From positions 434,001 through 498,000 of the forward strand of contig NZ_CP053351.1 in NCBI RefSeq assembly GCF_013394655.1: 64,000 nucleotides of DNA. Reading direction: 5' to 3'. Shown piece after piece: positions 2,143-49,459 of the stretch; within the stretch, counting starts at the first letter, position 1; each line of letters begins with the position of its first letter. The notes beneath the pieces were generated by a model. It saw only the letters and a list, made by a program, of their open reading frames with translations, made no database searches and was not told where the DNA came from. The translations under genes were made by a program, and so were the position numbers. Source of the DNA: Winogradskyella schleiferi. Lineage in GTDB: Bacteria > Bacteroidota > Bacteroidia > Flavobacteriales > Flavobacteriaceae.

Positions 2143-2145
2143 CAA

Positions 2146-2165
2146 ATTCCTGCGTACGCAGGAAT
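2146..2165. repeat. REP-like perfect palindrome
   Basis: ATTCCTGCGTACGCAGGAAT is a perfect 20-base palindrome starting four bases after the thioredoxin-like stop codon. It shares the TTCCTGCG...GCAGGAA arms with the repeats at 25965-25986 and 26247-26268, so it belongs to a dispersed family. It lacks the T-tract of an intrinsic terminator. Confidence 0.75.
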
Positions 2166-2350
2166 CCCGTCCTAAGAAAAAATGTTTTGAATCGTGACAA
2201 AACCTTTTCTGTTATTAGTTCAAAATTGCAAAAAGTTTTGTTTTATTTACCTTTTATACCTGTCAGGTAGATGCTGAACTAAACTCAGCACTTCGCCTTA
2301 CAGGATATTTTGATTAAGCCAAGGTCGATAAGTGAAAAAACATCAAAATA

Positions 2351-3016: not shown

Positions 3017-3019
3017 GTT

Positions 3020-27296: not shown

Positions 27297-27385
27297 AAAA
27301 AAGCCCATCTTAGCATTCCCATATTCCGCTTGAGAAGAAGGATAAACCACTAAAGTCGGAGTTAAAAAAAATGTAATATCAAAAT

Positions 27386-28723: not shown

Positions 28724-28834
28724 GCTATTCACTTCATACGGAGTCATTTTATCGAAAAAAAGAGCATTCGTTTCCTTTTAATCAATTATTTAGTACGTTC
28801 GTCTGTTTTAGAGTTAAAATTTTAACATTTCTAC

Positions 28835-28842
28835 TAGATTTG
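28835..28842 (+). promoter_or_regulatory. -7 element of the di-haem peroxidase gene
   Basis: TAGATTTG matches TAnnTTTG. It overlaps the TTG at 28840 that would otherwise extend the reading frame, so transcription should start near 28849 and the ATG at 28867 is the real start. Confidence 0.5.
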
Positions 28843-28866
28843 GATGTTATTCAAAATCTTCGGAAT

Positions 28867-30204: not shown

Positions 30205-30323
30205 AAACAAGATGAGTTTTTCATTAACCTTTCTTAGATAATAGTAATTATCATATTCGTATTCTCAGCGTTTACATTTAAAAAATCATTAACTTTAAAA
30301 TTCAATAATTAATTGATTTAAAG

Positions 30324-34412: not shown

Positions 34413-34580
34413 CTGATATGTAGTTTTTTAAACATGTTTCTATTGTTTTTTTGACCATATAGTGCTAGCCTTTTTATGGGTCTGCATTAATAGGACTTGC
34501 CTATAAAAAAATAGTGAAAGTCATTTCTTCCAGCTCTTCCTAGCTTGCTCTCAATTAATTAATCTTAAAATTCAAAAATT

Positions 34581-35636
34581 ATGAAAATTGATGAGAACGC
34601 ACTAAACACGCTCTTAGGTAAAATGGTTACCGAAATGGGAGCAGCTGCAATTGGACCACTTATTATTATAGGTGATAAACTAGGAATTTATAAAGCAATG
34701 GAAGCAAAAGGGAGTGCAACTTCAGCAGAGCTTGCTGTAGCTTCAGGAGTCAACGAACGTTATATAAGAGAATGGTTATCCGCACATGCAGCTTCTGGAT
34801 ATGTTGAATATGAGGCAACAAACGAAACGTTTTCATTAACACCAGAACAAGCTTTTGTATTTAGTAATCCGGATAGTCCTGTGTTAATGACAGGAGCATA
34901 CTATGCCATATCATCCATGTATCATGATGTACCAACAATGGAGAAAGCGTTCAAGTCTGGAGATGGCGTGTCTTGGGGTAATCATCATAGTTGCTTATTT
35001 TGTGGTACAGAAAAATTCTTCAGACCTTCTTATGCCACTAATTTGGTGCAAACTTGGTTACCAACTCTTGATGGTGTGGTGGAAAAATTACAAAAAGGTG
35101 CAAAAGTAGCTGATGTTGGTTGCGGACATGCAGCTTCTACAATGATTATGGCAAAAGCCTTTCCTAATTCAGAATTTATTGGTTTCGATTTTCATCAAGG
35201 TTCAATAGATCATGCCGCTTTACATGCCAAAGAATCTGGATTGGATAATATTTCATTTCAAGTTGCAACAGCAAAGGACTTTCCGGGAATTGATTATGAC
35301 CTCGTCACTTTTTTCGATTGTCTACATGATATGGGTGATCCAGAAGGTGCTTGCGCTCATACGGTAAAAGCATTAAAACCAGATGGCACTTGTATGATTG
35401 TTGAACCGTTTGCTAATGATACTTTAAAAGACAACATCAATCCTGTTAGTAGGGCTTTTTACTCGTTTTCAACCTTATTGTGTACGCCAAGTTCTATGAG
35501 TCAAGAAGTAGGCTTGGCATTAGGTGCTCAAGCAGGTGAAAAACGATTAAGTGAAGTGGCGCTAAAAGGAGGCTTTAATCACTTTAGAAGAGCTACAGAA
35601 ACGCCTTTTAATTTAATACTTGAGGCTAGGCTTTAA
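34581..35636 (+). CDS. SAM-dependent methyltransferase with N-terminal winged helix
   Basis: The 351 residues start with a helical/winged-helix dimerisation part (about 1-110; TSAELAVASGVNERYIREWL), as in O-methyltransferases and the Rv2258c-like group. The class I methyltransferase fold follows, with SAM motif I VADVGCGHAAST (about 175-186), an acidic strand end FIGFDF, and VTFFDCLHDMGDP. A Cys-rich HHSCLFCGTEKFF at about 135-147 is unusual and may bind metal. The protein is cytoplasmic. It lies 168 bases after the hybrid regulator and could be its target, but no operator is seen. Substrate unknown. Confidence 0.82.
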   Translation: MKIDENALNTLLGKMVTEMGAAAIGPLIIIGDKLGIYKAMEAKGSATSAELAVASGVNERYIREWLSAHAASGYVEYEATNETFSLTPEQAFVFSNPDSPVLMTGAYYAISSMYHDVPTMEKAFKSGDGVSWGNHHSCLFCGTEKFFRPSYATNLVQTWLPTLDGVVEKLQKGAKVADVGCGHAASTMIMAKAFPNSEFIGFDFHQGSIDHAALHAKESGLDNISFQVATAKDFPGIDYDLVTFFDCLHDMGDPEGACAHTVKALKPDGTCMIVEPFANDTLKDNINPVSRAFYSFSTLLCTPSSMSQEVGLALGAQAGEKRLSEVALKGGFNHFRRATETPFNLILEARL

Positions 35637-35675
35637 TGAAAATTTCAAATTATTATAAATCATTTATATAACATT

Positions 35676-36185
35676 ATGAAAACTAAATTTAAAATTACAT
35701 TCCTTATTATCTGTGCATTATTTATTGTGGGATTTTGTAACAGTGACGATGGGCAAACTAACGACCGTGAAGACCTAATCAATACGCAATACCCTGAAGC
35801 GAAACAAGAGGTGATCGAAACCTGGGCTGCCATTGAACAAAGCGTTAGAGAGGGTGATATGGATAAGCTGATTTCCTTTCACGGCTATAGTCCAAAGTTT
35901 ACTGAATATAAAAATGGAGAAGTAGTAAATGATGGAGCAGCAAACGAAGCTTACGAACGAAGAGCTTATGGTGCAGTAACCGAAGTAGTAAGCTTTGCTA
36001 CAAACGATTTTAAAGTCGCCGTTTATGGTGATGTAGCTAATATGACGTTTCAGTCTGATTTTCAAATAAAATTTGGGGATAATCTAGCTGTTATTAAAGA
36101 ACAAACAACATTATTATTCGTAAGAACAAACTACGGATGGAAAATTGTTCATGAACATCATTCACCTTTGAACACTGCAGATTAA
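35676..36185 (+). CDS. SnoaL/NTF2-like lipoprotein
   Basis: After a signal peptide with a lipobox-like LFIVGFC, the 169-residue protein has the helix-then-sheet pattern of the NTF2-like (SnoaL/DUF4440) fold: TWAAIEQSVREGDMDKLISF, later FKVAVYGDVANMTFQSDF, then TTLLFVRTNYGWKIVHEHHSP. The closing WKIVHEHHS is typical. Such proteins bind small ligands or act as simple enzymes; no catalytic set can be assigned. It lies 39 bases after the methyltransferase, probably co-transcribed. Confidence 0.75.
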   Translation: MKTKFKITFLIICALFIVGFCNSDDGQTNDREDLINTQYPEAKQEVIETWAAIEQSVREGDMDKLISFHGYSPKFTEYKNGEVVNDGAANEAYERRAYGAVTEVVSFATNDFKVAVYGDVANMTFQSDFQIKFGDNLAVIKEQTTLLFVRTNYGWKIVHEHHSPLNTAD

Positions 36186-36212
36186 TGTTATAAATAATAG
36201 TAACTTTACGCT

Positions 36213-37136
36213 GTGAATCATAAACAGCAATACACCGAACTTATAAAAACCGAAGCCAAACGCCTCGGTTTTTTGTCATGTGGCATAAGTAAAGCACAAT
36301 TTTTAGACGAAGAAGCTCCACGTTTAGAGGCGTGGTTAAATAAGAATATGAATGGCGAAATGCGTTATATGGAAAACCATTTCGATAAGCGTTTAGATCC
36401 AACTTTGCTTGTTGAAGGTTCAAAAAGTGTAGTGTCGTTATTATTGAATTATTATCCTTCTGAAATACAAAATGAGGATTCCTATAAGTTATCAAAATAT
36501 GCTTATGGAACAGATTATCATTTCGTTATAAAGGACAAATTAAAATCACTTTTACATTATATACAAGATGAAATTGGCGAGGTTGGTGGTCGAGCTTTTG
36601 TAGATTCGGCACCAGTTTTAGATAAGGCTTGGGCAGCAAAATCGGGTTTAGGTTGGATAGGAAAACACTCCAACCTATTAACGCAACAAGTAGGTTCGTT
36701 TTATTTTATTGCTGAATTAATCATCGATTTAGAACTCGAATACGATACACCAGTGACCGACCATTGCGGTACATGTACAGCTTGTATAGACGCCTGCCCA
36801 ACAGAAGCCATCACAGAACCTTATGTGGTAGATGGCAGTAAATGTATTTCTTATTTTACTATAGAACTTAAAGAACATATACCCTCAGAATTCAAAGGTC
36901 AATTTAACGATTGGATATTTGGTTGCGATATCTGTCAGGATGTTTGCCCTTGGAACCGCTTTTCCAAACCGCACAAAGAACCCTTATTCAATCCACATCC
37001 CGAATTATTGGATATGACCAAAAAAGATTGGGAAGAGATTACCGAAGATACCTTTAGAAAAGTTTTTCAGAAGTCCGCAGTGAAGCGTACTAAGTTTTCT
37101 GGTTTGGAACGGAATATTAAGTTTGTTAAGGACTAA
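36213..37136 (+). CDS. queG: Epoxyqueuosine reductase QueG
   Basis: QueG makes queuosine from epoxyqueuosine in tRNA, using cobalamin and two [4Fe-4S] clusters. The 307 residues contain the N-terminal cobalamin-binding domain, the [21 protein letters not shown] block with the catalytic aspartate, and the ferredoxin cysteines [12 protein letters not shown] (about 185) and CDICQDVCP (about 238). The start is GTG at 36213. Its 3' end is repeated at 45353-45474 and, decayed, at about 46930-47130. The stop codon overlaps the stop of the convergent lacI-type gene. Length is close to family norm, so this copy is intact. Confidence 0.95.
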
Positions 37137-38161
37137 TTCTTGGTCGATGCTCTTTTAATAAGTTTAGTTTCCAACGCTACGGTCTTAAATTTTACTGGCA
37201 AATTTTGTTTTCGTTTTTTAATCTCCTTGTATAAAAGTTTAAATGCTTCTTTCCCCATGTCATAACCCGGTTGATTAATGGTTGTTAAGGTTGGGGATAT
37301 CACTGAAGACATAAACCAATTGCTAAACCCAACAATAGAAATATCTTCAGGTATGTTAATTCCTAATTTGTTAAATTCTGTCATGGCTCCAATTGCTACT
37401 AAATCTGTATTGATAAAAATACCATCGACATCTTTATGATCGTTAAATAATTTTCTTGCATTCTCTTTACCCTCTTCAAAACTATTGTCGCCACATTCAC
37501 AGATATAGACTAAAGACGGATCGTATGTTAAACCATTATCCATCAAAGCTTTTTTATATCCAAGGAAACGGTCAATTGAGTTTTGAGGTAAAAGAGGGCC
37601 TCTAAAGTGAGCAATACGTTTACAGCCTGAATCAATTAAATGTTGAGTAGCCATATAAGCTGCTTTCCGATCATCAATTATTACCTTTGAGCAATTTACA
37701 ATTTTTGCGATTTTATCAAACATCACCAGAGGTAATTCTTGGGATATTAAGTTGTTAAGATGTTTGAAATCCCCAGTTCCATTGGCAAGAGAGATAAGGA
37801 TGCCGTCAACCCTTTTGCTTAACAATAAATCTAATTGCTTCTTTTCGAGCTCGTAAGATTCATTGGACTGAAGAATTATAACGAGATAACCTTTTTTTTC
37901 GGCTCTAGCAATAATGCCCTTTATAACACTTGAAAAAAAATGATGAACAACCTCTGGAATGATAAGTCCTATCGTTTTTGATTCTTTAGTCCTAAGATTG
38001 ACAGCAAATGCATTTGGTTTATAATTTAAAACTTCTGCAGTTTCCTTAACTAAACGCTTTGTCTTTTTACTCACATCAGGATAATCTTTTAACGCTTTTG
38101 AAACGGTTGAAACGGACATTCCGAGAGTTTCTGCAATTTCTTTTAAAGTAACTTCCTTCAT
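37133..38161 (-). CDS. LacI-family regulator of the sucrose locus
   Basis: The 342 residues start with a LacI helix-turn-helix ([20 protein letters not shown]) and hinge (VAVNL-like FAVNLRTK), followed by a periplasmic-binding-protein-like sugar domain ([16 protein letters not shown] onward). It is divergent from the TonB-dependent receptor gene, and two CGAAAACGTTTTCG palindromes lie between them, so it probably controls both directions. Its TAG stop is read from bases that form the end of queG (37133-37135), so the two genes overlap tail to tail by four bases. The inducer is probably sucrose or fructose, inferred from the neighbours. Confidence 0.92.
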
Positions 38162-38199
38162 AATTAAAAAAGATAAATAGGATACAAAAGTAACAAATT

Positions 38200-38213
38200 C
38201 GAAAACGTTTTCG
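38200..38213. promoter_or_regulatory. LacI-type operator 1
   Basis: CGAAAACGTTTTCG is a perfect 14-base palindrome with the central CG typical of LacI-family sites. It lies 39 bases upstream of the lacI-type gene, next to that gene's likely -7 element (38185-38192 read on the minus strand, TACTTTTG). Confidence 0.85.
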
Positions 38214-38218
38214 GTAAA

Positions 38219-38234
38219 TCGAAAACGTTTTCGA
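38219..38234. promoter_or_regulatory. LacI-type operator 2
   Basis: TCGAAAACGTTTTCGA is a 16-base perfect palindrome, the same core as operator 1 with centres 20 bp apart, about two helical turns. This places two repressor dimers on the same DNA face. Confidence 0.85.
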
Positions 38235-38267
38235 TACGAATTTCTTAAATATTTTTAATCTTAACTA

Positions 38268-38275
38268 TAAATTTG
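38268..38275 (+). promoter_or_regulatory. -7 element of the TonB-dependent receptor gene
   Basis: TAAATTTG matches TAnnTTTG, 45 bases before the ATG at 38320 and 33 bases after operator 2. The -33 region is weak, which would suit a regulated promoter. Confidence 0.5.
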
Positions 38276-38319
38276 ATAAATATTACGCTAATAAAATACT
38301 AATTAAACAACATTTAAAA

Positions 38320-40950
38320 ATGAAATCAATTAAAAACAAAATGTATTTATTGCTTCTGTTTACCATGGTAACAGCAGCAGTTTCTGCACAGAGCAGTATC
38401 TCAGGTGTCGTAAAGGATTCTGAGGGCATAACACTTCCAGGTGTTAATGTAATTTTAGAAGGTACATCAAAAGGTGCCGTTTCCGATTTAGATGGAAATT
38501 ATGTGATTACTAATGTTGAAAATGGAACATACACCATTGTAGGTTCTTATTTGGGTTTTACAACATTTAGAAAGTCAGTTACAATCGATGGTAGTGATAT
38601 TACTGTTGACATTACAATGGCCGAAGATGCCGAATCTTTAGATCAAGTGATTGTTACAGGCGTAACAAATCCAAGATCTAAAATTGAGTCTAGTGTGTCT
38701 GTAACTACGATGAGACCAGATAAAATTCAAGAGTCAGCTCCTAGGACAACAGCAGAAATTTTTAGAACTATTCCTGGTATTCGTTCAGAATCTTCAGGTG
38801 GTGAAGGTAACTCTAATATTGCAGTTCGTGGTGTGCCAGTATCTTCAGGTGGTTCTAAGTATGTACAACTTCAAGAAGATGGTTTACCAGTGTTATTATT
38901 TGGTGATATGTCTTTTGCCACAGCAGATATTTTCACGAGATTTGATAATAATATAGGTAGAATTGAAGCTATCAGAGGTGGCTCTGCATCTACATTATCT
39001 ACAAACTCTCCAGGTGCTATAATTAACTTAATTAGTAAAACTGGTAAGACAGAAGGCGGCTCTATTGGAACTTCTTTTGGTTTAGATTACAGTTCATTTA
39101 GAACCGATTTCGATTATGGTTCACCAATAGGTGAAGGATTATATTTTCACATGGGTGGGTTTTATCGTGTAGGTGAAGGTATTAGAGATGCTGGTTATAC
39201 CGCTAATAATGGAGGACAATTTAAATTTAATTTAACGAAGGAATTTGATAAAGGTTACGTTAGAGTATATGCAAAATATTTGAATGATAGAGCAATTGCT
39301 TATTTACCTAACCCAATTCAAGTAACAGGCACAAATTCGGATCCGAATTTTGAGAACATTCCTAATTTTGATGCGAATAGTCAAACGTTACACACACCAT
39401 ATTTATCTCAAAACGTCGGTGTCGGTGAGAGCGGAGAATTACGTCGTTCTGATGTAAGCGATGGTATGAATCCGATTTCTACTTCGTTTGGATTAGAAGC
39501 ATCATTTGATTTAGGTGATGGCTTTAAAATAAAAAATAATGGTAGATTCTCTATGAATAAAGGAGGTTTCAACTCTCCGTTTCCAGCGAGTGTGTCAACA
39601 GCGTCAGATTTTTTAGCCGGAGATTTTGCGACAAACAATGGTTACAGCTCATTAGCTTATGCCAATGGAGATGGTGCTGTTAGTGATAGTTCTATTTTAA
39701 CACCTGTAGTATTGTTCGATACGCAATTAAACAACTTCAATAATTTTATGAACGACATTCGTTTAACCAAGAATTTTGATGCAGTCGATGTTACTCTCGG
39801 TTATTTTAAAGGCATTCAAAATGTGTCAATGTCATGGTTGTGGAACTCTTATTTACTTGAAGCTGCCGGAGATAATGCAAGACTTATCGACGCTTTAGAT
39901 TCCAATGGAGATCCACTTTCTACTAATGGACTTGTAGGTTATGGAGCAGCATTCTTTGGGAATTGTTGCCAGCGAAGCTATGATACACGTTATAATACAT
40001 CTGCACCTTATTTGGCGGTTGGAGTACAGGCATCTGAAAAATTTAATATTGATGCTAGTATTCGTTTCGATAATGGTAAAGTTGATGGCTCATTTTCTGG
40101 CCCTGTAACGTCTGAATATGACGTTAACAATGATGGTGAAATTTCTTTACCAGAGCAATCAGTTCAGTCTATAGATTTAGCAAACCCAACTACAGTAGAT
40201 TATGATTATAACTATGTATCTTATTCCTTAGGAGCTAACTTCTTGTTAAAAGATAACGAAGCTGTCTTCGCAAGATACAGTAGAGGTGCAGCAGCAAAAG
40301 CAGACCGTATTTTATTTGCAGGCTTAGATTATACCGACGGCGATAGAATTAATGCTTTAGATTTTATTAACCAAGCTGAAGTAGGTTATAAAAGAGGGTT
40401 TGAGAATGGTTCGTTATACGCCACTTTGTTTTATGCCAAAACAACTGAGGAAGGTGGTTTTGAAGCCACTTCAAACAGTATTATTGAAAATGATTATAAG
40501 TCTTTGGGTATAGAAATTGAAGGTTCATATAGGTTTAATAATTTTGATGTACGTGGAGCTTTAACTTTTACCGATGCAGAAATTGATTCTGGTGATAATG
40601 AGGGAAATACTCCAAGGAGACAACCAGATTTTATTTACAATTTAATTCCTACATATAATTTTGGTAGTGAAAAGCAAAATTCCTTCGGACTTAGTTTCAT
40701 TGGTCAAAGTAAGGCTTATGCTCAAGATTCAAACGAATTAGTATTACCTGGTTTTGTAATAATCAATAGTTTTATTAATGTCGGAGTCACTAACAACTTG
40801 TTCGTAAATTTATCAGCTAACAACATATTTGACACATTAGGAATAACTGAATCTGAAGAAGGAAGTATAGTAGAAGGTCAGACTAACTATTTAAGAGTAA
40901 GACCAGTGCCAGGAAGATCGCTTTCATTAGGATTAAATTATAAATTCTAA
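38320..40950 (+). CDS. TonB-dependent outer membrane receptor (probable sucrose uptake)
   Basis: The 876-residue protein has a signal peptide (to about 23, VSAQ), a carboxypeptidase-regulatory-like domain (ISGVVKDSEGITLPGVNV...), a plug domain (DQVIVTGVTNPRS..., IEAIRGGSASTLSTNSPGAI) and a C-terminal 22-strand barrel ending in aromatic LNYKF. It imports a ligand across the outer membrane with TonB energy. No SusD partner follows, unlike glycan systems. Its place between a LacI regulator and a sugar transporter, kinase and phosphorylase matches the Xanthomonas sux-type layout, so sucrose is the likely ligand (inference). A terminator follows, so it is its own transcript. Confidence 0.88.
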   Translation: MKSIKNKMYLLLLFTMVTAAVSAQSSISGVVKDSEGITLPGVNVILEGTSKGAVSDLDGNYVITNVENGTYTIVGSYLGFTTFRKSVTIDGSDITVDITMAEDAESLDQVIVTGVTNPRSKIESSVSVTTMRPDKIQESAPRTTAEIFRTIPGIRSESSGGEGNSNIAVRGVPVSSGGSKYVQLQEDGLPVLLFGDMSFATADIFTRFDNNIGRIEAIRGGSASTLSTNSPGAIINLISKTGKTEGGSIGTSFGLDYSSFRTDFDYGSPIGEGLYFHMGGFYRVGEGIRDAGYTANNGGQFKFNLTKEFDKGYVRVYAKYLNDRAIAYLPNPIQVTGTNSDPNFENIPNFDANSQTLHTPYLSQNVGVGESGELRRSDVSDGMNPISTSFGLEASFDLGDGFKIKNNGRFSMNKGGFNSPFPASVSTASDFLAGDFATNNGYSSLAYANGDGAVSDSSILTPVVLFDTQLNNFNNFMNDIRLTKNFDAVDVTLGYFKGIQNVSMSWLWNSYLLEAAGDNARLIDALDSNGDPLSTNGLVGYGAAFFGNCCQRSYDTRYNTSAPYLAVGVQASEKFNIDASIRFDNGKVDGSFSGPVTSEYDVNNDGEISLPEQSVQSIDLANPTTVDYDYNYVSYSLGANFLLKDNEAVFARYSRGAAAKADRILFAGLDYTDGDRINALDFINQAEVGYKRGFENGSLYATLFYAKTTEEGGFEATSNSIIENDYKSLGIEIEGSYRFNNFDVRGALTFTDAEIDSGDNEGNTPRRQPDFIYNLIPTYNFGSEKQNSFGLSFIGQSKAYAQDSNELVLPGFVIINSFINVGVTNNLFVNLSANNIFDTLGITESEEGSIVEGQTNYLRVRPVPGRSLSLGLNYKF

Positions 40951-40997
40951 TACAAACATATTTGAGTTAGTTAGATTCTTAAGTTTGATTGATTGGT

Positions 40998-41040
40998 AAA
41001 AAGAGTCGGTGTTAATGTTTTATCATTGGCTCTTTTTTTT
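40998..41040 (+). terminator. Terminator after the TonB-dependent receptor gene
   Basis: AAAAAGAGTCGGTG (40998-41011) pairs, with a few G-T pairs, with CATTGGCTCTTTTT (41024-41037), followed by more T. This separates the receptor from the transporter operon, so the latter needs read-through or its own promoter. Confidence 0.7.
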
Positions 41041-41098
41041 CTTAAAATGATTACTTTGCTATTTAACTAAATACTAACTATACCAGACATTGAAAACC

Positions 41099-42433
41099 AT
41101 GTTAAAGACAAAACCAAGCTTAAGTTTCTGGCAAATATTTAATATGAATGTGGGATTCCTTGGAATTCAGTTCAGTTTTGGTTTGCAGCAAACAGCAGTT
41201 AATCCTATCTTTTCTTTCTTAGGTGCAAGTCATGAGGATTTACCTTTATTAAATTTAGCAGGACCAATAACAGGTTTGATTATTCAGCCTATAATTGGTG
41301 CGATTTCAGATAAAACGTGGTCGCCGAAATGGGGAAGAAGAAAACCATTCTTTTTAATTGGTGCGCTTATAGGAAGTTTATGTTTGTTTGCATTTCCTTA
41401 TAGCCCATCGTTATGGTTTGCAGTTGGTTTATTGTGGATTTTAGATGTTGGAAATAATATGGCAATGGAACCTTACAGAGCTTTTGTTGGTGATAAATTA
41501 CCAAATAAACAGCTAAGTTTTGGTTACCAGATGCAAAGTTTGTTTGTTGGTGCTGGTATTGTTTTGGCAAATGCATCGATATTTCTATTTCAAGATTGGT
41601 TCGGTGGCCAAGAAGTTGTGGATGAAACGGTAAAGTCAATTCCGAAATGGTTATATTATTCCTTTTATATTGGTGCCATTTTATCAATAAGTACGATTTT
41701 GTGGTCTGTTTTAAAAACACCAGAGATACCACCTGAAGCGGATGAGTTAGAAGAAATTAATAAGCATAAGGCCTTACCTTTTTCTGAACGTGTTAAAACA
41801 CCGTTCATAGAAATTTGGGAGGCTATTAAAGACATGCCTAAATTTATGTGGAAGCTTGCTGGAGTGTATCTCTTTCAATGGTATGCACTATTCATTTACT
41901 GGCAATTTATTTCACCAATGTTTGAAGAAAGTGTAGGTTTTGATAAATCCCAAGCTTTAAGTCAGGCGGCTAAAATGAACACAACCTACAACATTTCTAC
42001 CATAGTATTTGCTTTGGCATTAGTACCATTAGCCTTAAAATGGGGAGGAAAAAAAGTGTATGTCTTAAGTTTGTTTTTAACAGGAATAGCGATGTTGTCC
42101 ATTCCAAATATTCAAGATCCCACTATGGTATTATTGCCAATGGTTTTATTCGGAATTGGTTGGGCGGCCATGATGGGAATTCCATATTCAATGGTTTCTA
42201 AAATAGTACCTCAAGAACGAAGAGGCGTTTATATGGGAATTTTGAATATGATGATTGTAATTCCTATGGGAATTCAAACATTAACCTTTGGTCCAATAGT
42301 TAAGAATCTATTAAACAATAGTGCGGTTAATGCGATACTGTTTGGAGGTGTATTTTTCGTTATTGCAGGTATGTTGGCATTGCGTTTAAAACAACCTGAG
42401 GAAATTCTAGAAGAAAAAAGTATTGATAATTAA
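41099..42433 (+). CDS. MFS sugar transporter (GPH/sucrose-type)
   Basis: The protein has twelve membrane helices. NMNVGFLGIQFSFGLQQTAV and the loop SDKTWSPKWGRRKPFF (with the RxGRR signature) match the sucrose/proton symporter group of the major facilitator superfamily, related to plant SUT proteins. It would carry the disaccharide over the inner membrane. The ATG at 41099 gives MLKTKPSLSF; an in-frame TTG at 41090 would add three residues. It is followed by a kinase gene (14-base gap) and a phosphorylase-like gene, so the three form an operon. Substrate is inferred from family and context. Confidence 0.86.
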   Translation: MLKTKPSLSFWQIFNMNVGFLGIQFSFGLQQTAVNPIFSFLGASHEDLPLLNLAGPITGLIIQPIIGAISDKTWSPKWGRRKPFFLIGALIGSLCLFAFPYSPSLWFAVGLLWILDVGNNMAMEPYRAFVGDKLPNKQLSFGYQMQSLFVGAGIVLANASIFLFQDWFGGQEVVDETVKSIPKWLYYSFYIGAILSISTILWSVLKTPEIPPEADELEEINKHKALPFSERVKTPFIEIWEAIKDMPKFMWKLAGVYLFQWYALFIYWQFISPMFEESVGFDKSQALSQAAKMNTTYNISTIVFALALVPLALKWGGKKVYVLSLFLTGIAMLSIPNIQDPTMVLLPMVLFGIGWAAMMGIPYSMVSKIVPQERRGVYMGILNMMIVIPMGIQTLTFGPIVKNLLNNSAVNAILFGGVFFVIAGMLALRLKQPEEILEEKSIDN

Positions 42434-42447
42434 GAATTGAATTTGTT

Positions 42448-43386
42448 TTGGAAAACAGTATAAAGAATATAGATATATTGTGTATTGGTGAGGTACTGAT
42501 AGATTTTATTGGGCATCAAAAAGATGTTCATATTAACAACACAAGAGATTATCACAGGTATTTAGGAGGCTCACCAACCAACGTTGCAATGAATGCAGCA
42601 AGACTAGGACTAAAATCTAGAATGGTTGCCACTGTCGGGAATGATGGCTTTGGGGAGTATATTTATGAACGTTTAAATCAAGTTGGAGTCGATACAAATT
42701 CCATTAATAAAATTAATAATAAACCAACGAGTGTTATTTTTGTATCAAGATCTCAGAATACACCAGATTTTATCCCTTACCGTGAAGCGGATTATCGGAT
42801 TTCTGAAAGTCAAATTCCATTAGCATTGCTGGCAAACACCAAAATTTACCATACCACTTGTTTTGCACTTAGTAAAAACCCTGCTCAAGCTACTATTTTA
42901 AAAAAGGCAGAAGAAGCGTACAATTTGGGCTGTCAGTTAAGCATCGATATTAACTATGCGGATGAATTGTGGGAGGATAAGAAAGATGCCCTAAGCGTTA
43001 TCAAGGCATATTGCAAGTTTAATCCATTGATTAAAATTAGTGAAGATGATATGTCAAGACTGTTTGAACGCCATTTACCACATGATGAAATCTTTGAGTT
43101 TTTTCATAAGGAAGGTGTCGAAACGATTTGTTTAACTTTAGGAAGTAAAGGAGTTAAATTATCTCAAAAACATCAGCCAGTTATAGAATTGCCAGCCATT
43201 AAAGTTGAAAATGTTATGGATGCTACAGGAGCTGGAGACGCCTTTTGGTCAGGATTCTTATTCGCTTATATCAAAGATAAACCAATAGAAGAATGTCTAA
43301 AAGTGGCATTAAAGCTAGCAGCATTAAAACTTCAAAATGTTGGAAGACTACCAGACAACATTGATATTTTATCCAAACTGTTATAA
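42448..43386 (+). CDS. PfkB-family fructokinase
   Basis: The 312-residue kinase has the PfkB signatures: GGSPTNVAMNAARLG near the start (sugar binding) and DATGAGDAFWSGFL at about 258-271, with the catalytic Asp at about 264 and anion-hole glycines. Beside a sucrose phosphorylase-like gene it would phosphorylate released fructose to fructose 6-phosphate. The start is TTG at 42448; no ATG fits, and the frame is closed just upstream by the transporter stop. Substrate is inferred from context, since the family also includes ribo- and gluconokinases. Confidence 0.88.
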   Translation: MENSIKNIDILCIGEVLIDFIGHQKDVHINNTRDYHRYLGGSPTNVAMNAARLGLKSRMVATVGNDGFGEYIYERLNQVGVDTNSINKINNKPTSVIFVSRSQNTPDFIPYREADYRISESQIPLALLANTKIYHTTCFALSKNPAQATILKKAEEAYNLGCQLSIDINYADELWEDKKDALSVIKAYCKFNPLIKISEDDMSRLFERHLPHDEIFEFFHKEGVETICLTLGSKGVKLSQKHQPVIELPAIKVENVMDATGAGDAFWSGFLFAYIKDKPIEECLKVALKLAALKLQNVGRLPDNIDILSKLL

Positions 43387-43398
43387 TACCATATTATT

Positions 43399-45138
43399 AT
43401 GATCAAAAGTGAAAGCCTAAACCTTTCTAATGGTGTAATGCTAAATGCATATCCTGATAGTATAGGTAAAAAATTAAGTGATACTATTGAAATGCTGCAA
43501 TTGCCAGAGTTTAAGGATGCATTTTCTTTATTCTATGTTTTGCCCACCTTTTTTAATAGTGATTTAGATCGCGGTTTCTCCATTATAGATTACAACCTTA
43601 ATAAAGAATTGGTTTCTAAAGACGATTTAAAAGTATTGAATGAGTTAAATATCATGTTGAAATTTGATATTGTTTTAAATCATCTATCGGTAGCCTCACC
43701 TCAGTTCAAGGATTTATTGAAATATGGTGATGACTCTAAATACAAGGATTTTTTCATTAATTGGAATACGTTTTGGGAAGGACATGGGAGTAAAAATGAA
43801 GATGGTATAATCATTCCTAAAAAAGAATTTCTCAACAAGTTATTCATGAGAAAATCGGGGTTACCTATTTTAAAAGTACCGTTTCCAGATGGTTCAAAAC
43901 GACCGTATTGGAATACGTTCTATCAGCAGGTCAATTACAATAGAATTACTGTAGCTGATTTAGAGAGCATAAAAGAATTAAATAACGTCGACAAAACAAT
44001 AATAGTAGAAAAAGTTAATAAGGTCATAGAAGGTGATGAAGATATAAGTGCTATTAACTTTAAAAAATACAATCATTTAAAATCTGAAATATTAAAAGTA
44101 GTAGACAGAAACTGTACCTATCTAGGGCAAATGGATGTTAATGCCAATTCTGAATTAGTTTGGGAGTTTTATGAAGACACATTAGCCAAAGTAAAAAGCT
44201 TTGGTTGTAAAGTATTAAGGTTAGATGCATTTGCTTATTTGCATAAAGAAGTTGGTCAATCTAACTTTTTTAATAAACCTGGTACATGGCAACATTTGGA
44301 GCGAATAAAACAAATAGCAAACAAAAATGATCTCACACTTTTACCAGAAATCCATGCGGAATATGGTTTACATCTACATGATGAAGTTGCAGAGAAAGGT
44401 TATCACATTTATGATTTTTTTCTACCTGGATTAGTCATTCATACCCTAGAAAAAGGAAGTAATAAGGCACTTTTAAAATGGGCTAAGGAAATTATTGATA
44501 AAGATTATAAAACTGTAAATATGCTCGGCTGCCATGACGGCATTCCTGTTTTAGATTTAAAAGGAAAGGAAGTCAATGGAATTTATAATCAAGGTTTACT
44601 TCAAGATAAAGAAATAGAAGATATAATGAATGTCATAATGGAGCGTGGCGGACGAGTTAAAAACCTCTATGATCCATCTGGAAAAAAGATATCATATTAT
44701 CAAATTAATGCCACATATTTTAGTGCTTTAAAAGAGAATGAACAAAAATTACTCGCCGCTAGAGCCATTCAATTATTTATGCCAGGCATTCCACAAATTT
44801 GGTATCTTGATTTATTCGTAGGGAAAAATAACTATGAGGCTGCGGACAAAGCAGGTAACGGAGGGCATAAGGAAATTAATCGCACAACGTTAAGCCTAAA
44901 TGATGTAAGAGCTGGTTTAAAAACAGACATTGTAAAAAATCAACTTAAAATAATTAGGTTAAGAAACACTTCAAAAGCATTTTTTGGTAAGCTAACAATT
45001 AAGGATACTTCGGATAATGAAATTGATATGGTTTGGAAAAACAATGGTGCTTTTGCGCATCTTGAGTTAAATCTAATTTCTTATAAGCTTTCAATAACGT
45101 ATTCAAATGGTGATAAAATTGTTGTATTAAATTTTTAA
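43399..45138 (+). CDS. GH13 sucrose phosphorylase-like enzyme
   Basis: The 579 residues form a GH13 (alpha/beta)8 barrel of the sucrose phosphorylase subgroup. The nucleophile Asp is at about 276 in RLDAFAYLHKEVG, the acid/base Glu at about 317 in LLPEIHAEY, and the transition-state His-Asp at about 379-380 in GCHDGIPVLD; the early FDIVLNHLS is conserved region I. Sucrose plus phosphate would give glucose 1-phosphate and fructose. Related enzymes act on glucosylglycerate or glucosylglycerol, so the exact acceptor needs a test. No signal peptide: it works in the cytoplasm after uptake. It is the last gene of the operon (12 bases after the kinase). Confidence 0.86.
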   Translation: MIKSESLNLSNGVMLNAYPDSIGKKLSDTIEMLQLPEFKDAFSLFYVLPTFFNSDLDRGFSIIDYNLNKELVSKDDLKVLNELNIMLKFDIVLNHLSVASPQFKDLLKYGDDSKYKDFFINWNTFWEGHGSKNEDGIIIPKKEFLNKLFMRKSGLPILKVPFPDGSKRPYWNTFYQQVNYNRITVADLESIKELNNVDKTIIVEKVNKVIEGDEDISAINFKKYNHLKSEILKVVDRNCTYLGQMDVNANSELVWEFYEDTLAKVKSFGCKVLRLDAFAYLHKEVGQSNFFNKPGTWQHLERIKQIANKNDLTLLPEIHAEYGLHLHDEVAEKGYHIYDFFLPGLVIHTLEKGSNKALLKWAKEIIDKDYKTVNMLGCHDGIPVLDLKGKEVNGIYNQGLLQDKEIEDIMNVIMERGGRVKNLYDPSGKKISYYQINATYFSALKENEQKLLAARAIQLFMPGIPQIWYLDLFVGKNNYEAADKAGNGGHKEINRTTLSLNDVRAGLKTDIVKNQLKIIRLRNTSKAFFGKLTIKDTSDNEIDMVWKNNGAFAHLELNLISYKLSITYSNGDKIVVLNF

Positions 45139-45352
45139 CCCTATTTAAAACTAAATTCTACAGAATACTTACGAAAAAAACTATCTCTTATCTTTTCGAA
45201 ATTGTGATACTCATAAAGCTAGTAATCACCAAATCCTACATTATAAATCCGAAATGAAATGTTTAACGTTATACTTAAACTCTAAAATTACTGCTTAAAA
45301 TAGGTGGACTTTAGTTTCGAACTCAATATTTAGAAGAAAAAAAGTTTGAGTT
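45139..45352. other. Spacer between the sucrose locus and the first queG remnant
   Basis: The 214 bases are AT-rich and hold no supportable gene, terminator or promoter. With the remnant and the next spacer this makes a stretch of 468 bases (45139-45606) without an intact gene. Confidence 0.5.
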
Positions 45353-45474
45353 ATGATCAAAAAAATTAGGAAAAGATTACCGAAGATACTTTTAGAAAGG
45401 TATTTCAAAAATCTGCTGTAAAGCGTACTAAGTTTTTCGGTTTGGAGCGAAATATTAATTTTCTTAAAGATTAG
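45353..45474 (+). pseudogene. Remnant of a queG 3' end
   Basis: From 45370 the frame reads [20 protein letters not shown] then [14 protein letters not shown] and a TAG, against [20 protein letters not shown] then [14 protein letters not shown] in intact QueG: 30 of 34 residues match. Over these 105 bases, 18 differ from queG (about 83% identical). Of 17 changed codons, 13 (including the stop) are silent. Upstream the match continues to about 45353 with a one-base deletion that shifts the frame, and an in-frame TAG precedes residue 1, so nothing is expressed as QueG. It is a displaced or duplicated queG tail. Confidence 0.9.
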
Positions 45475-45606
45475 CTCATTTTTTAAACCCAATATCCTGT
45501 CGTTAACATCATTTTAACCACCTCCTAAGCATCTGCGTTAAGAAAATCTTTAAAACAGAACATGTTTTAGACCAATAACATGTAAGTTAAAAGGGAACCT
45601 AATAAG

Positions 45607-46197
45607 ATGTATATGAAGATTTTAAAAATAATGGCATTGGCTTTAATAACCACCCTTTTCGCTTGTGGGCCAAAATTAACAACAGAAAAAATGGGTACAA
45701 CAGATTTGAGCAATTATAAAACTTTTGCGTATCTCCCTAACAGTAATTTTGACGATTTAGAGAAATTCGAAACCGATAGTAATGTAGGAATGTCGGTGAT
45801 TGAAAGTGTTAACCAAAACATGAAAAATCAAGGTTATACTATAGAACGGAACAATCCAGATTTGTTGGTTTTGCTGAGTACATCCACAGATATTGAAAAG
45901 ACGGTGGACCAAGATCCGGTTTATGCCACATATCCTCGATATTATAATAGAATGTATCCTGTAAGTCCTTACTATCAAGATTATTACTATAATAATTATT
46001 ATGGTTATTCTAAACTTGTAGGTTATGAAACGGATGTCAATAAATATAAGGAAGGCATGTTACTCTTAAGACTAGTGGACACAGATAGTAAAAATGTGGT
46101 CTGGGAAGGGAAAGCATCTAATCTTATATTTCAGCAAAATGAATCGGAGGCCATATCGGAATTTGTCGATGATATGTTTGACGAATTTCCAAAGTAA
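45607..46197 (+). CDS. DUF4136 lipoprotein
   Basis: The 196-residue protein begins with a lipoprotein signal (KILKIMALALITTLFAC; cysteine about 20). A second ATG at 45613 is equally good. The mature part, DLSNYKTFAYLPN, NQNMKNQGYTIERNNPDLLVLL and EGMLLLRLVDTDSKNVVWEGKAS, shows the conserved blocks of DUF4136, a family of envelope lipoproteins of unknown role. A tyrosine-rich stretch (YYQDYYYNNYYGYS) lies in the middle. It probably shares a transcript with the fasciclin gene 35 bases downstream. Confidence 0.85.
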   Translation: MYMKILKIMALALITTLFACGPKLTTEKMGTTDLSNYKTFAYLPNSNFDDLEKFETDSNVGMSVIESVNQNMKNQGYTIERNNPDLLVLLSTSTDIEKTVDQDPVYATYPRYYNRMYPVSPYYQDYYYNNYYGYSKLVGYETDVNKYKEGMLLLRLVDTDSKNVVWEGKASNLIFQQNESEAISEFVDDMFDEFPK

Positions 46198-46231
46198 AAA
46201 CTTAATTATTAACTATAAAGCACAAATTATT

Positions 46232-46762
46232 ATGAAAACAAATAACATTAAAAATTTATTCTTGGCAGGTGCACTAATGCTAATAAGTACTTTAGGCTTT
46301 AGTCAAGATTCAATGGCACCTCTTTCAGGTGTAGACAACACAAAAGAATACAAAACAATAGATTTAATTTATATGGATAAGGATCTCTCTATCTTTGCAA
46401 ATTTATTGACCTTATCCGGTCTGGATACTTCCTTGGCAATGACAGAAAAAGAGCATACCTTATTTGTTCCCACCAACGAAGCTTTCAAGTATATGAGTAT
46501 AAAAAGATTTGCTGAATTGACCAACCCTAAAAATAGAGCTATGTTGGTTAAATTTGTAAACAATCATTTTACAGCTTCAAAAATTCAAAGTTACCAGCTC
46601 ACAGAATTCAAAATATTGGATTTAGATAATAACAATCGGATTCAAATTTCTGAATATGGTAATTCTGTATTTATTGGTGGTGCGAAAGTTATCGCTTCAG
46701 ATATTGAAACAGCAAATGGTTTAGTACATGTAGTGAACGATGTGGTTAGCGTTACTAAATAA
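46232..46762 (+). CDS. Exported fasciclin-domain protein
   Basis: The ATG at 46232 gives a 176-residue protein with a signal peptide (MKTNNIKNLFLAGALM...LGFSQ) and one fasciclin (FAS1) domain: LSIFANLLTLSGLDTSL, HTLFVPTNEAFKYM, a NHF block and ANGLVHVVNDVV. Such domains mediate adhesion or matrix binding. The frame is open upstream to 46094, but that part overlaps the DUF4136 gene and lacks a signal, so the later ATG is right. A strong terminator follows. Confidence 0.9.
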   Translation: MKTNNIKNLFLAGALMLISTLGFSQDSMAPLSGVDNTKEYKTIDLIYMDKDLSIFANLLTLSGLDTSLAMTEKEHTLFVPTNEAFKYMSIKRFAELTNPKNRAMLVKFVNNHFTASKIQSYQLTEFKILDLDNNNRIQISEYGNSVFIGGAKVIASDIETANGLVHVVNDVVSVTK

Positions 46763-46783
46763 TCGAAATTTTAAACTATTATT

Positions 46784-46827
46784 AAAGCAATCGTCTTAGA
46801 TTAGAAATCTGGGACGATTGCTTTTTT
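46784..46827 (+). terminator. Terminator after the fasciclin gene
   Basis: AAAGCAATCGTC (46784-46795) pairs perfectly with GACGATTGCTTT (46813-46824) around a 17-base loop, followed by TTT. Confidence 0.88.
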
Positions 46828-46929
46828 AAACTAACTCTCTTATAATTCTTCAGTTAAAAATGATCATTGGAATTTTCTAAATTATAATGAAAATAACGAT
46901 TAAATCGATCAAGCTCTTTAACATATTGA

Positions 46930-47130
46930 ATTTCTGGTCAGTCTCTAAAAACAATTTGTCTTTGGTTTTAAATACTATACATATAAGTCCTTTTAAATAA
47001 TTGTTGGATATAATCAACAGAGTTGAAAAAAATATTGAGAATACCTTTATGAATATAGTATAGAAGTCTGCAATCAAAGAAATAAAAATGTTATGTTTTA
47101 AAGCTGAATATTAAGTTTCTTAAAGATTAA
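46930..47130 (+). pseudogene. Heavily decayed second queG remnant next to maeB
   Basis: Islands of identity to the queG 3' end appear in the right order: TTTCTGGTCAG (46931-46941), AATTGTTGGATAT (46999-47011), ATACCTTTA (47041-47049), AGAAGTCTGCAATCAAAG (47062-47079), and a final AAT-ATT-AAG-TTT-CTT-AAA-GAT-TAA (47107-47130) coding NIKFLKD-stop, against NIKFVKD-stop in QueG. Frames are broken by several indels, so it cannot code. It is much older or faster decaying than the 45353 remnant. Boundaries are approximate and only the last 130 bases are convincing by eye. Confidence 0.7.
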
Positions 47131-47148
47131 ATTATAATTCTTTCATTG

Positions 47149-47156
47149 TATCTTTG
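47149..47156 (+). promoter_or_regulatory. -7 element of maeB
   Basis: TATCTTTG matches TAnnTTTG, 20 bases before the maeB ATG, and predicts a very short leader. The -33 is not clear. Confidence 0.5.
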
Positions 47157-47176
47157 GGTCTTATTCCATTCCAATT

Positions 47177-49459
47177 ATGAGCAAACAAAGCAAACGAATA
47201 GAAGCCTTAGTGTATCACGCCAAGCCTACACCAGGTAAAATAAAAGTGGTTCCTACTAAAAAGTACGCATCTCAGCGAGACTTATCTTTGGCTTATTCTC
47301 CTGGTGTAGCAGAACCTTGTTTAGAAATAGCTAAAGACGTCAATAACGTTTATAAGTACACAGCTAAAGGAAATCTAGTAGCCGTAATATCCAACGGTAC
47401 AGCTGTTTTAGGTTTAGGAAATATTGGGCCAGAAGCTTCAAAGCCTGTTATGGAAGGTAAAGGTTTGCTTTTTAAAATCTTTGCAGATATCGATGTTTTT
47501 GATATTGAAGTCAATACGGAAGATGTAGATGCTTTTATTGAAACGGTAAAGAATATCGCACCAACGTTTGGTGGTATAAATCTTGAAGATATCAAAGCGC
47601 CTGAAGCCTTTGAAATTGAACGTCGATTAAAGGAAGAATTAGATATTCCTGTAATGCATGATGATCAGCATGGCACAGCTATTATTTCGGCAGCGGCATT
47701 GTTAAATGCTTTGGAACTTGCTAATAAAAAAATTGAAGAAGTGAGTATTGTGGTTAGTGGAGCAGGTGCTGCCGCAATTTCATGTACACGTTTGTATCAA
47801 GCTTTTGGTGCTAAACGTGAAAATATTGTAATGCTAGATAGTAAAGGTGTTATTAGAAACGACAGAGAGAATTTAAGCGCGGAAAAAGCCGAATTCGCTA
47901 CGCACCATAAAATAGATACACTTGATGAAGCTATGACAAATGCAGATGTCTTCATTGGCTTATCTATGGCAGATATTGTCTCGCCTGAGATGCTGAAATC
48001 CATGGCTGTCAATCCAATTGTCTTCGCTATGGCCAATCCAAATCCTGAGATCAATTACCAACTTGCAATAGATACAAGGGACGATATTATTATGGCAACA
48101 GGTCGCAGCGACCATCCTAATCAAGTAAATAATGTGCTTGGATTTCCTTTTATTTTTAGAGGTGCATTAGACGTTCGAGCTACAAAGATTAATGAAGCCA
48201 TGAAAATGGCAGCTGTTAAGGCTTTGTCTAATTTAGCAAAGGAATCAGTACCAGAACAAGTAAACATTGCCTATTCCGAAACGAGACTTACATTCGGAAA
48301 GGATTATATAATTCCTAAACCTTTTGACCCAAGATTAATAGCAGAAGTTCCTCCTGCTGTAGCGAAAGCTGCTATGGAAAGTGGTGTTGCCAAAGAACCG
48401 ATAGAAGATTGGGACCGTTATAGAAACACCTTATTGGAACGCTTAGGTTCAGATAATAAGTTAGTTAGGCTATTATTGGGCAGAGCAAAAACAAATCCAA
48501 AACGTGTGGTTTTTGCCGAAGCCGATCAACTCGATGTTCTAAAAGCCGCTCAAATCGCTTATGATGAAGGTATCGCACTTCCAATTTTGTTAGGACGTAA
48601 AGAAACTATCAATGCATTAATGGAAGAAATTGAATTTGATGCCGATGTACCTATCATCGACCCTAAATCCGATGAAGAAACTGAACGAAAAAATCGCTAT
48701 GCAAAAGCGTATTGGGAAAAACGCAAACGTCAAGGTGTAACGATATACTCGGCCGAAAAAGTAATGCGCGAACGTAACTATTTTGCAGCCATGATGGTGA
48801 ATGTTGGTGATGCAGATACACTAATTACAGGTTATTCCCGTAACTATCCTTCGGTAGTAAGACCTATGTTAGAATTAATTGGAATGGCAGATGGTGTGAC
48901 AAGAGTGGCGGCAACCAACTTAATGATGACGCAACGAGGCCCGATGTTTTTGAGTGACACTTCAATAAATATTGATCCATCAGCAAAAGATTTAGCTAAA
49001 ATTGCTCGAATGACGTCAAGGGTAACCAAAATGTTTGGGATAGAACCAATAACAGCAATGATTTCTTACTCCAACTTTGGATCATCTGAAAATCCACGAG
49101 CTGAAAAAGTAAGGGAGGCAGTAGCTTACTTGCATAAAGCTTATCCTGAAATGGTGGTGGATGGCGAATTGCAAACCGATTTTGCTTTAAACCCGAAAAT
49201 GCTTCAAGATATTTTTCCATTTTCTAAATTGGCTGGTCGTAAAGTGAACACCCTCATTTTTCCAAATTTAGATGCTGCAAATATTACTTATAAATTGCTG
49301 AAAGAACTCAATAAAGCGGAATCTATTGGACCAATTCTGATGGGAATGCGTAAACCGGTTCACATATTACAATTGGGCGCCAGTGTAGATGAAATTGTAA
49401 ACATGACTGCAATAGCTGTTGTTGATGCTCAAGAACGAGATAAGAGTAAGGTGAAGTAG
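47177..49459 (+). CDS. maeB: NADP-dependent malic enzyme with C-terminal phosphotransacetylase-like domain
   Basis: This enzyme oxidatively decarboxylates malate to pyruvate and makes NADPH. The 760 residues comprise the malic enzyme part (about 1-420; SLAYSPGVAEPC, VMHDDQHGTAII, VSGAGAAAISC) and a phosphotransacetylase-like domain (about 425-760; RVVFAEADQLDVLKAAQIA, MLELIGMADGVTRVAATNL), which in this family is regulatory rather than catalytic. Length is standard for the fused form. The stop codon lies in the first unit of a 14-base tandem repeat. Just upstream lies a decayed queG tail, suggesting that queG was the original neighbour. Confidence 0.95.
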   Translation: MSKQSKRIEALVYHAKPTPGKIKVVPTKKYASQRDLSLAYSPGVAEPCLEIAKDVNNVYKYTAKGNLVAVISNGTAVLGLGNIGPEASKPVMEGKGLLFKIFADIDVFDIEVNTEDVDAFIETVKNIAPTFGGINLEDIKAPEAFEIERRLKEELDIPVMHDDQHGTAIISAAALLNALELANKKIEEVSIVVSGAGAAAISCTRLYQAFGAKRENIVMLDSKGVIRNDRENLSAEKAEFATHHKIDTLDEAMTNADVFIGLSMADIVSPEMLKSMAVNPIVFAMANPNPEINYQLAIDTRDDIIMATGRSDHPNQVNNVLGFPFIFRGALDVRATKINEAMKMAAVKALSNLAKESVPEQVNIAYSETRLTFGKDYIIPKPFDPRLIAEVPPAVAKAAMESGVAKEPIEDWDRYRNTLLERLGSDNKLVRLLLGRAKTNPKRVVFAEADQLDVLKAAQIAYDEGIALPILLGRKETINALMEEIEFDADVPIIDPKSDEETERKNRYAKAYWEKRKRQGVTIYSAEKVMRERNYFAAMMVNVGDADTLITGYSRNYPSVVRPMLELIGMADGVTRVAATNLMMTQRGPMFLSDTSINIDPSAKDLAKIARMTSRVTKMFGIEPITAMISYSNFGSSENPRAEKVREAVAYLHKAYPEMVVDGELQTDFALNPKMLQDIFPFSKLAGRKVNTLIFPNLDAANITYKLLKELNKAESIGPILMGMRKPVHILQLGASVDEIVNMTAIAVVDAQERDKSKVK

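What the first reader, a model, noticed from the sequence alone, without database searches (positions are those of the whole stretch)
36213..47130. Three copies of the queG 3' end bracket two cargo modules: a likely insertion hotspot
Intact queG ends at 37136. A remnant of its tail lies at 45353-45474, after the sucrose locus, and a decayed one at about 46930-47130, after the DUF4136/fasciclin pair and just before maeB. In islands that integrate into the 3' end of a gene, the incoming DNA supplies a new 3' end and the old one is left at the far side. Two such events would give exactly this picture, with the outermost tail the oldest and most decayed. From memory queG often adjoins maeB in this family, which would be the ancestral state. 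No integrase remains in the window.
Basis: partly seen in the sequence, partly recalled or inferred. Interest (0 to 1): 0.88.

Follow-up and report, generated by a model that had tools for sequence, protein, structure and literature searches.

The report
Integrase-free gene insertion hotspot at queG
In this marine bacterium and its relatives, new gene sets have repeatedly been inserted directly behind the housekeeping gene queG, and leftover old ends of queG record some of these insertions; no enzyme of the usual kind that would insert DNA there was found, so ordinary recombination between related DNA is the likeliest cause.

Summary
Two remnants of the queG 3' end lie behind queG on the same strand: 45352-45473 (84%, E 9e-32) and 46999-47130 (68%, E 1e-4); 129.0 and 40.1 bits against a best of 31.9 in 300 shuffles. 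The spot is a real hotspot. In the genus (Winogradskyella) queG and maeB lie at most 300 bp apart in 25 of 64 genomes; the other 39 carry 0.86-17 kb of varied cargo. Ten of 68 genomes carry 11 queG tails, all in queG's orientation, all between queG and maeB. A classical integrase island is not supported: no tyrosine recombinase found in the intervals, scattered left edges, and a 99% recombination tract that starts at a tail and ends inside a cargo gene. Best reading: integrase-free cassette accretion by homologous recombination anchored in queG, with some non-homologous joins. A site-specific origin stays possible: three left edges coincide near -179.

The parts
36213..37136 (+). queG, intact; the anchor of the hotspot
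   Evidence: Pfam QueG_DUF1730 1e-21, Fer4_16 1.2e-23; found in 68 of 68 genus genomes
37133..38161 (-). LacI-type regulator, first gene of cargo module A; its end overlaps the end of queG
   Evidence: Pfam LacI and Peripla_BP; queG|LacI junctions printed for 10 genomes
38320..40950 (+). TonB-dependent receptor, module A
   Evidence: Pfam TonB_dep_Rec_b-barrel, Plug
41090..42433 (+). MFS sugar transporter, module A
   Evidence: Pfam MFS_1, MFS_2
42448..43386 (+). PfkB sugar kinase, module A
   Evidence: Pfam PfkB 9.5e-50
43399..45138 (+). GH13 enzyme (sucrose-phosphorylase-like: name recalled), last gene of module A
   Evidence: Pfam Alpha-amylase 22.5 bits, cut-off 22
45142..45351 (-). B fragment 1: 3' end of the module-B gene, cut off at tail 1
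   Evidence: nhmmer, model positions 2-219, E 3.3e-12; two tblastn pieces
45352..45473 (+). queG tail remnant 1 (from -123)
   Evidence: 84% over 123 bp, E 8.8e-32
45607..46197 (+). DUF4136 protein, module C
   Evidence: Pfam DUF4136 3.9e-26
46229..46762 (+). fasciclin-domain protein, module C
   Evidence: Pfam Fasciclin 5e-24
46910..46980 (-). B fragment 2 (decayed), left of tail 2
   Evidence: nhmmer, model positions 126-197, E 9.1e-5; no BLAST match to fragment 1
46999..47130 (+). queG tail remnant 2 (decayed, from -133)
   Evidence: 68% over 136 bp, E 1.2e-4; nhmmer E 0.013
47131..47176 (+). maeB leader; with tail 2 it looks like the ancestral queG-maeB junction
   Evidence: by eye like the short queG-maeB gaps of genomes without cargo; 32 of 36 identical to G014's leader
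47177..49459 (+). maeB, right border of the hotspot

Best explanation
The queG-maeB gap is an integrase-free insertion hotspot. A DNA fragment from a relative, carrying a queG 3' part and the cargo behind it, recombines homologously with the recipient's queG. The right end of the fragment joins the recipient's old queG tail: at first without homology, at a variable point; later possibly by homology, because cargo that already ends in a queG tail has queG homology at both ends (as a linear fragment, or as a circle inserted by one crossover). The recipient then has an intact queG with the cargo's own 3' end, the cargo, and the old tail followed by whatever used to follow queG. Repeats stack modules, newest next to queG. 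Shown: hotspot, tails, cargo-linked 3' ends in the compared cases, a tract that starts at a tail, no tyrosine recombinase in the scanned intervals. Inferred: order of steps, RecA dependence, uptake by transformation, tails as homology arms.
For: Hotspot: queG-maeB gap over 300 bp in 39 of 64 genus genomes; maeB-ruvA 4 of 62, ruvA-sprA 0 of 63. Tails: 11 in 10 of 68 genomes; in the genus none elsewhere in the up to 17.5 kb scanned downstream at E <= 0.1. Junctions: tail 1|DUF4136 looks like queG|DUF4136 in G014, G006's tail is followed by G027's queG-downstream sequence, G057's tail|B equals G009's queG|B. 3' ends: the last 15 bases of the remnant equal a relative's queG end and the own queG differs in window/G014, G052/G025, G006/G027, G057/G009. 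Tracts: G057-G009 1,940 bp at 99.4% against a pair median of 90.5%, from the tail's left edge into B; G012-G061 6,619 bp at 99.0% against 84.2% inside module A. No tyrosine recombinase in the scanned intervals. A cut inside gene B at tail 1.
Against: None of the 11 tails exceeds about 184 bp although queG offers 920 bp. G057's left edge and contig ends in two other genera coincide near -179. No maeB heads, which symmetric random joins would predict. The G006-G027 tract is mostly 91-100% from the tail's end into B but has windows of 88% and 70%, and the tract scan did not flag it. The 15 end bases shared by G006's remnant and G027 occur in 9 of 68 queG genes. Tail 2 is not recovered in G014. 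Microhomology was seen by eye in one join only. The DprA match has a stop inside. Serine recombinases were not searched. The ruvB-queG gap is variable too.
Confidence: 0.55

Rival explanations
1. Classical site-specific integration: a recombinase, now lost or acting in trans, inserts elements at a fixed point about 179 bp before the queG stop; the element restores the gene end, and older tails have been trimmed from the left.
For: In the compared cases the old gene end stays at the far side. G057's tail, 99% like G009's queG end, starts at about -176 to -182. Contig C27 of G342 and contig C26 of G268 both begin exactly 179 bases before the stop; the G342 copy is 98% identical to its own queG end (224 of 229). 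No genus tail exceeds about 184 bp.
Against: No tyrosine recombinase in the intervals of 68 genus and 80 named loci; PF00589 matches of 7 genus genomes all lie outside the interval. G342's repeat runs about 50 bp past the queG stop. The edges in G342 and G268 are contig ends. The G057-G009 tract shows exchange inside B. Phage and plasmid records gave only distant queG genes under 60% identity.
Confidence: 0.23
2. Mirror image: the fragment is anchored on the right, in maeB or module B, and its left end joins the recipient's cargo without homology. The distal tail is then the incoming DNA and the intact queG is native.
For: In G057 the tail and the following 1.77 kb are 99.4% identical to G009 while queG and its upstream are 89% on average. 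The window's B fragment joined to tail 1 can be read either way.
Against: In the window and G052 the remnant carries the 3' end of the nearest relative's queG and the intact queG another one. The three genomes with module F first share the queG end AAAATA[AG], found in 3 of the other 65.
Confidence: 0.14
3. Old resident genes lost in patches: the gap has held sugar genes since early in the family, and the tails are by-products of local duplications.
For: Module A, or single genes of it, sits at this spot in other genera.
Against: Tails sit between modules at junctions seen without them in relatives. Modules occur in different orders and combinations. Module A is 99.0% identical between two genomes that are 84.2% alike around it.
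Confidence: 0.05

Closest known systems
[quoted passage not shown] 2017, PMC5635113; abstract and one results section read)
   Same: Core genes on both sides, turnover of cargo, no recognised integrase, homologous tracts around the spot.
   Different: Here the flanking gene leaves tail fossils between modules, and the tails may themselves serve as homology arms.
Homology-facilitated illegitimate recombination and single-crossover integration of circularised fragments (PMC3240628; abstract and introduction read)
   Same: One homologous and one non-homologous end would give joins at variable points; a single crossover through a queG tail would duplicate that tail around the insert.
   Different: Described from laboratory events; here inferred from genome comparison at one recurrent spot.
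Islands and prophages that integrate into the 3' end of a protein gene and restore it (e.g. phage 21 / e14 in icd: recalled)
   Same: Restored gene end next to the insert, displaced old end at the far side.
   Different: No tyrosine recombinase found, scattered left edges, no fixed crossover shown.
Integron cassette arrays (recalled)
   Same: Modules stack behind a fixed anchor.
   Different: No tyrosine integrase found; multi-gene modules in both orientations; attC sites not looked for.

Membership tests
Site-specific island in the 3' end of a gene | Gene 3' end restored, old end displaced to the far side | tested here: met
   four compared cases of 11 tails, junctions
Site-specific island in the 3' end of a gene | Tyrosine recombinase gene in the element | tested here: not met
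   0 of 1,478 ORFs of at least 60 aa match a profile of 29 integrases at E <= 0.01; PF00589 matches of 7 genus genomes lie elsewhere. Serine recombinases and the 20 loci were not searched.
Site-specific island in the 3' end of a gene | One fixed crossover point | tested here: inconclusive
   11 genus tails start from about -184 to -72, but three edges coincide near -179
MGE-free recombination hotspot | Varied cargo between conserved core neighbours | tested here: met
MGE-free recombination hotspot | Homologous recombination at the flanks and in the cargo | tested here: met
   13 tracts above the pair background; not compared with the rest of the genome
MGE-free recombination hotspot | Natural competence of the host | tested here: inconclusive
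   ComEC-type match in an open frame; DprA match with one in-frame TAA
Homology-facilitated illegitimate recombination | Homologous at one end, non-homologous at the other | tested here: inconclusive
   tract from tail edge to inside B in G057; direction not settled
Homology-facilitated illegitimate recombination | 3-10 bp microhomology at the non-homologous join | tested here: inconclusive
   AAGAA at the module F|tail join by eye only; no statistical test
Integron | IntI-type (tyrosine) integrase next to the array | tested here: not met
Integron | attC sites between cassettes | not tested
   no search made

The most novel reading that the evidence does not exclude
The queG 3' end works as an attachment site without a recombinase: any cargo that once acquired a queG tail at its far end has homology to queG at both ends, so it can be excised as a circle or taken up as a fragment and inserted behind queG in any recipient by RecA alone, stacking modules like a cassette array.
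Probability: 0.33. Interest if true: 0.7.

Novelty: new variant of a known kind. Interest (0 to 1): 0.52.

Why it matters
Many gene-turnover hotspots have no mobile element, and how cargo gets in is mostly argued from statistics. Here the flanking gene leaves a readable fossil at some joins, so order, direction and donor of single insertions can be worked out. If tails act as homology arms, the end of a core gene can become an attachment site without any enzyme of its own, which is directly testable in the laboratory.

Tried and rejected
Chance similarity: rejected by shuffles and by the window's other ORFs. A tendency of all genes: 558 other ORFs of at least 150 aa in the 68 stretches gave 30 rows, one in each of 30 genomes, all for an ORF of 240-250 aa 11-16 kb downstream; by length and place I take these for one pair of neighbouring similar genes. 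maeB heads as mirror remnants: none by BLAST in 39 genomes and none by profile in 243 kb. A weak tail row outside the pattern: L168, a named locus of another genus, E 0.024, beyond maeB; taken for chance. Phages and plasmids: 3 and 2 records with a match, all under 60% identity and annotated as queG or as an electron transport protein. IMG/VR: no relative with whole queG; with the tail alignment one contig, L225, in which a broken queG tail and maeB stand beside phage-like genes; possibly a chimeric assembly, so not used. A link between integrase loci and the G342 or G268 contig edges: none found. Papers: queG with integration site and island gave one unrelated paper; Winogradskyella with hotspot one unrelated paper; none; (44 and 30 papers, listings seen) gave the two papers I read in part. 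So 'no prior report' means only these searches. Not done: serine recombinase search, gene trees, attC search, structure prediction, a genome-wide search for other such spots. On re-checking, the G006-G027 tract proved weaker than I first wrote, so I lowered the main odds from 0.58 to 0.55, the bold reading from 0.35 to 0.33, and raised two rivals by 0.01 each.
Full report
CHECK OF THE OBSERVATION. BLAST of queG against the window gives two further places on the same strand: 45352-45473 (84%, E 8.8e-32) and 46999-47130 (68%, E 1.2e-4). A search of the whole genome with the last 148 bp finds queG and these two. The scores, 129.0 and 40.1 bits, exceed the best of 300 dinucleotide shuffles, 31.9. 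Of 39 window ORFs of at least 110 aa no other shows such copies: three other rows are matches of 17, 21 and 41 bp, the last between two neighbouring ORFs.

RELATIVES. All 68 genomes held of the genus have queG. I call the genus Winogradskyella because contigs agree in length and place with named records. I fetched queG with up to 17.5 kb downstream for the 67 relatives; about ten stretches are cut by contig ends. maeB was found in 64 of 68: the gap is at most 300 bp in 25 and 861-17,049 bp in 39. The four without maeB are G013 and G055, where it follows further on, G044, which ends at a contig end, and G045, where module B is followed directly by ruvA. Gaps further right are quiet: over 300 bp in 4 of 62 for maeB-ruvA, 0 of 63 for ruvA-sprA, 0 of 53 and 0 of 52 for the next two pairs tested; but the gap left of queG (ruvB-queG) is variable as well, 31 of 53 (gene names partly recalled). 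Outside the genus the gap is at most 300 bp in 15 of 45 named loci that show maeB (counted by hand) and in 12 of 20 further stretches, some of them the same genomes.

CARGO. Modules recur in different combinations: A, the sugar locus of the window; B, a ~790-aa minus-strand gene (23 genomes, and by eye G013 and G055); C, DUF4136 + fasciclin; D, a ~400-aa protein; E, an exporter pair with small genes; F, a 233-aa protein; and others. The letters are mine. Five contigs outside the genus hold all five genes of A at the same spot (L136, L146, L231, L241, L243).

TAILS. A profile of queG tails finds 11 tails in 10 of 68 genomes (two in the window; one each in G006, G013, G022, G024, G028, G042, G046, G052, G057), all on the + strand and all between queG and maeB; the weakest, window tail 2, has E 0.013. 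G006 and G024 seem to share one junction, so independent events are fewer than 11. With the same method no maeB head was found. Among 299 genomes drawn from the family, seven outside the genus had a second queG match; two of these look like tails, G155 and G342. After the tails I compared comes what normally follows queG: the spacer before DUF4136 as in G014, the end of B, the LacI end, or the maeB leader.

WHICH END IS NEW. The last 15 bases of tail 1 equal those of G014's queG, which lacks module A; the window's own queG ends differently and overlaps the LacI gene. G052's remnant equals G025's queG end, G006's equals G027's, G057's equals G009's, while their own queG ends differ. G006's match is weak evidence, since nine of 68 queG genes end so. 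All three genomes with module F first end queG in AAAATA[AG]; 3 of the other 65 do. I compared these four cases, not all 11.

HOW IT HAPPENED. Against an integrase: a profile of 29 integrases (from the loci) found none at E <= 0.01 in 1,478 ORFs from the intervals of 68 genus and 80 named loci (23 of them of the genus) and nine extra stretches; it recovered 4 of 4 controls, three of which had gone into the profile. The left edges of the 11 tails run from about -184 to -72 from the queG stop. For homologous recombination: a scan of all pairs found 13 tracts above the pair background, two very close pairs left out. In G057 and G009 the tract (1,940 bp, 99.4% against 90.5%) starts at the tail's left edge and ends inside B. 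In G006 and G027 identity from the end of the tail into B is mostly 91-100% in 100-bp windows, with one of 88% and one of 70%, against 88% over queG and its upstream; the scan did not flag this stretch, so it is suggestive only. Module A is 99.0% identical over 6.6 kb between G012 and G061, 84.2% alike otherwise. In the window a cut-off 3' end of B stands directly left of tail 1, and by profile a more decayed one left of tail 2; they stop at model positions 219 and 197. They do not match each other by BLAST, and G014 shows no recognisable tail 2 in its gap, so the reading 'one B|tail join, reused in two modules' is inference. In G042 the remnant and the intact tail are identical over about 60 bp near the end but differ before it, as local exchange between the copies would give.

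WHAT SPEAKS FOR A SITE-SPECIFIC ORIGIN. In G342 (another genus) contig C27 begins 179 bases before a queG stop with a 98% copy of the own tail and about 50 bp beyond it. In G268 (a third genus) a contig also begins exactly 179 bases before the stop. The longest genus tail, in G057, starts at the same place within about 3 bases. Two of these are contig ends and the comparison was made after the fact, but the coincidence is unexplained, as are the upper limit near 184 bp and the lack of maeB heads. I give this rival 0.23.

LITERATURE. Oliveira et al. 2017 (PMC5635113; abstract and the section on recombination read) describe hotspots without mobile elements and with more recombination in flanking core genes. 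PMC3240628 (abstract and introduction read) describes homology-facilitated illegitimate recombination, mostly with 3-10 bp microhomology, and single-crossover integration of circularised DNA. The own genome has a ComEC-type match in an open frame and a DprA match with one stop inside, so competence is possible but not shown.

VERDICT. A real hotspot of a known general kind with unusually legible joins; most likely integrase-free.

Noticed in passing
window 27297-36212: The ruvB-queG gap upstream is variable too: over 300 bp in 31 of 53 genus genomes where both were seen, 8.9 kb in the window. Only about 1.5 kb upstream was fetched for the relatives, so the count is limited.
   Followed up: no
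L105 (G342 C27) and L107 (G268 C26), contig ends: Contigs of two different genera begin exactly 179 bases before the queG stop; what stands left of them is unknown.
   Followed up: partly
L225:9950-10300: An IMG/VR contig has a queG tail with a stop codon in place of a tryptophan codon, then maeB, next to genes that look like phage tail and partition genes (recalled resemblance); possibly chimeric.
   Followed up: partly
L136, L146, L231, L241, L243: All five genes of the sugar locus (module A) occupy the same queG-maeB gap in five contigs outside the genus.
   Followed up: partly
L078 (G045): No maeB at the hotspot: module B is followed directly by ruvA.
   Followed up: no
L054 (G021), 152-236 after the queG stop: A module-B fragment that stops at model position 212, near where the window's two fragments stop, here followed by the maeB leader.
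   Followed up: partly
L105 reverse strand, 270-422: Behind the G342 tail copy lies a short frame that looks like part of an IS transposase (recalled resemblance); similar DNA stands at the end of contig C39.
   Followed up: no
L079 (G046), 2137-5719 after queG: Cargo behind the tail includes an ATPase-like gene with two neighbours that may be a defence module (recalled resemblance; not searched).
   Followed up: no
L039 (G006) and L060 (G027), just before module B: By eye, the last ~20 bases before module B look like the very end of queG, a possible further, very short tail.
   Followed up: no
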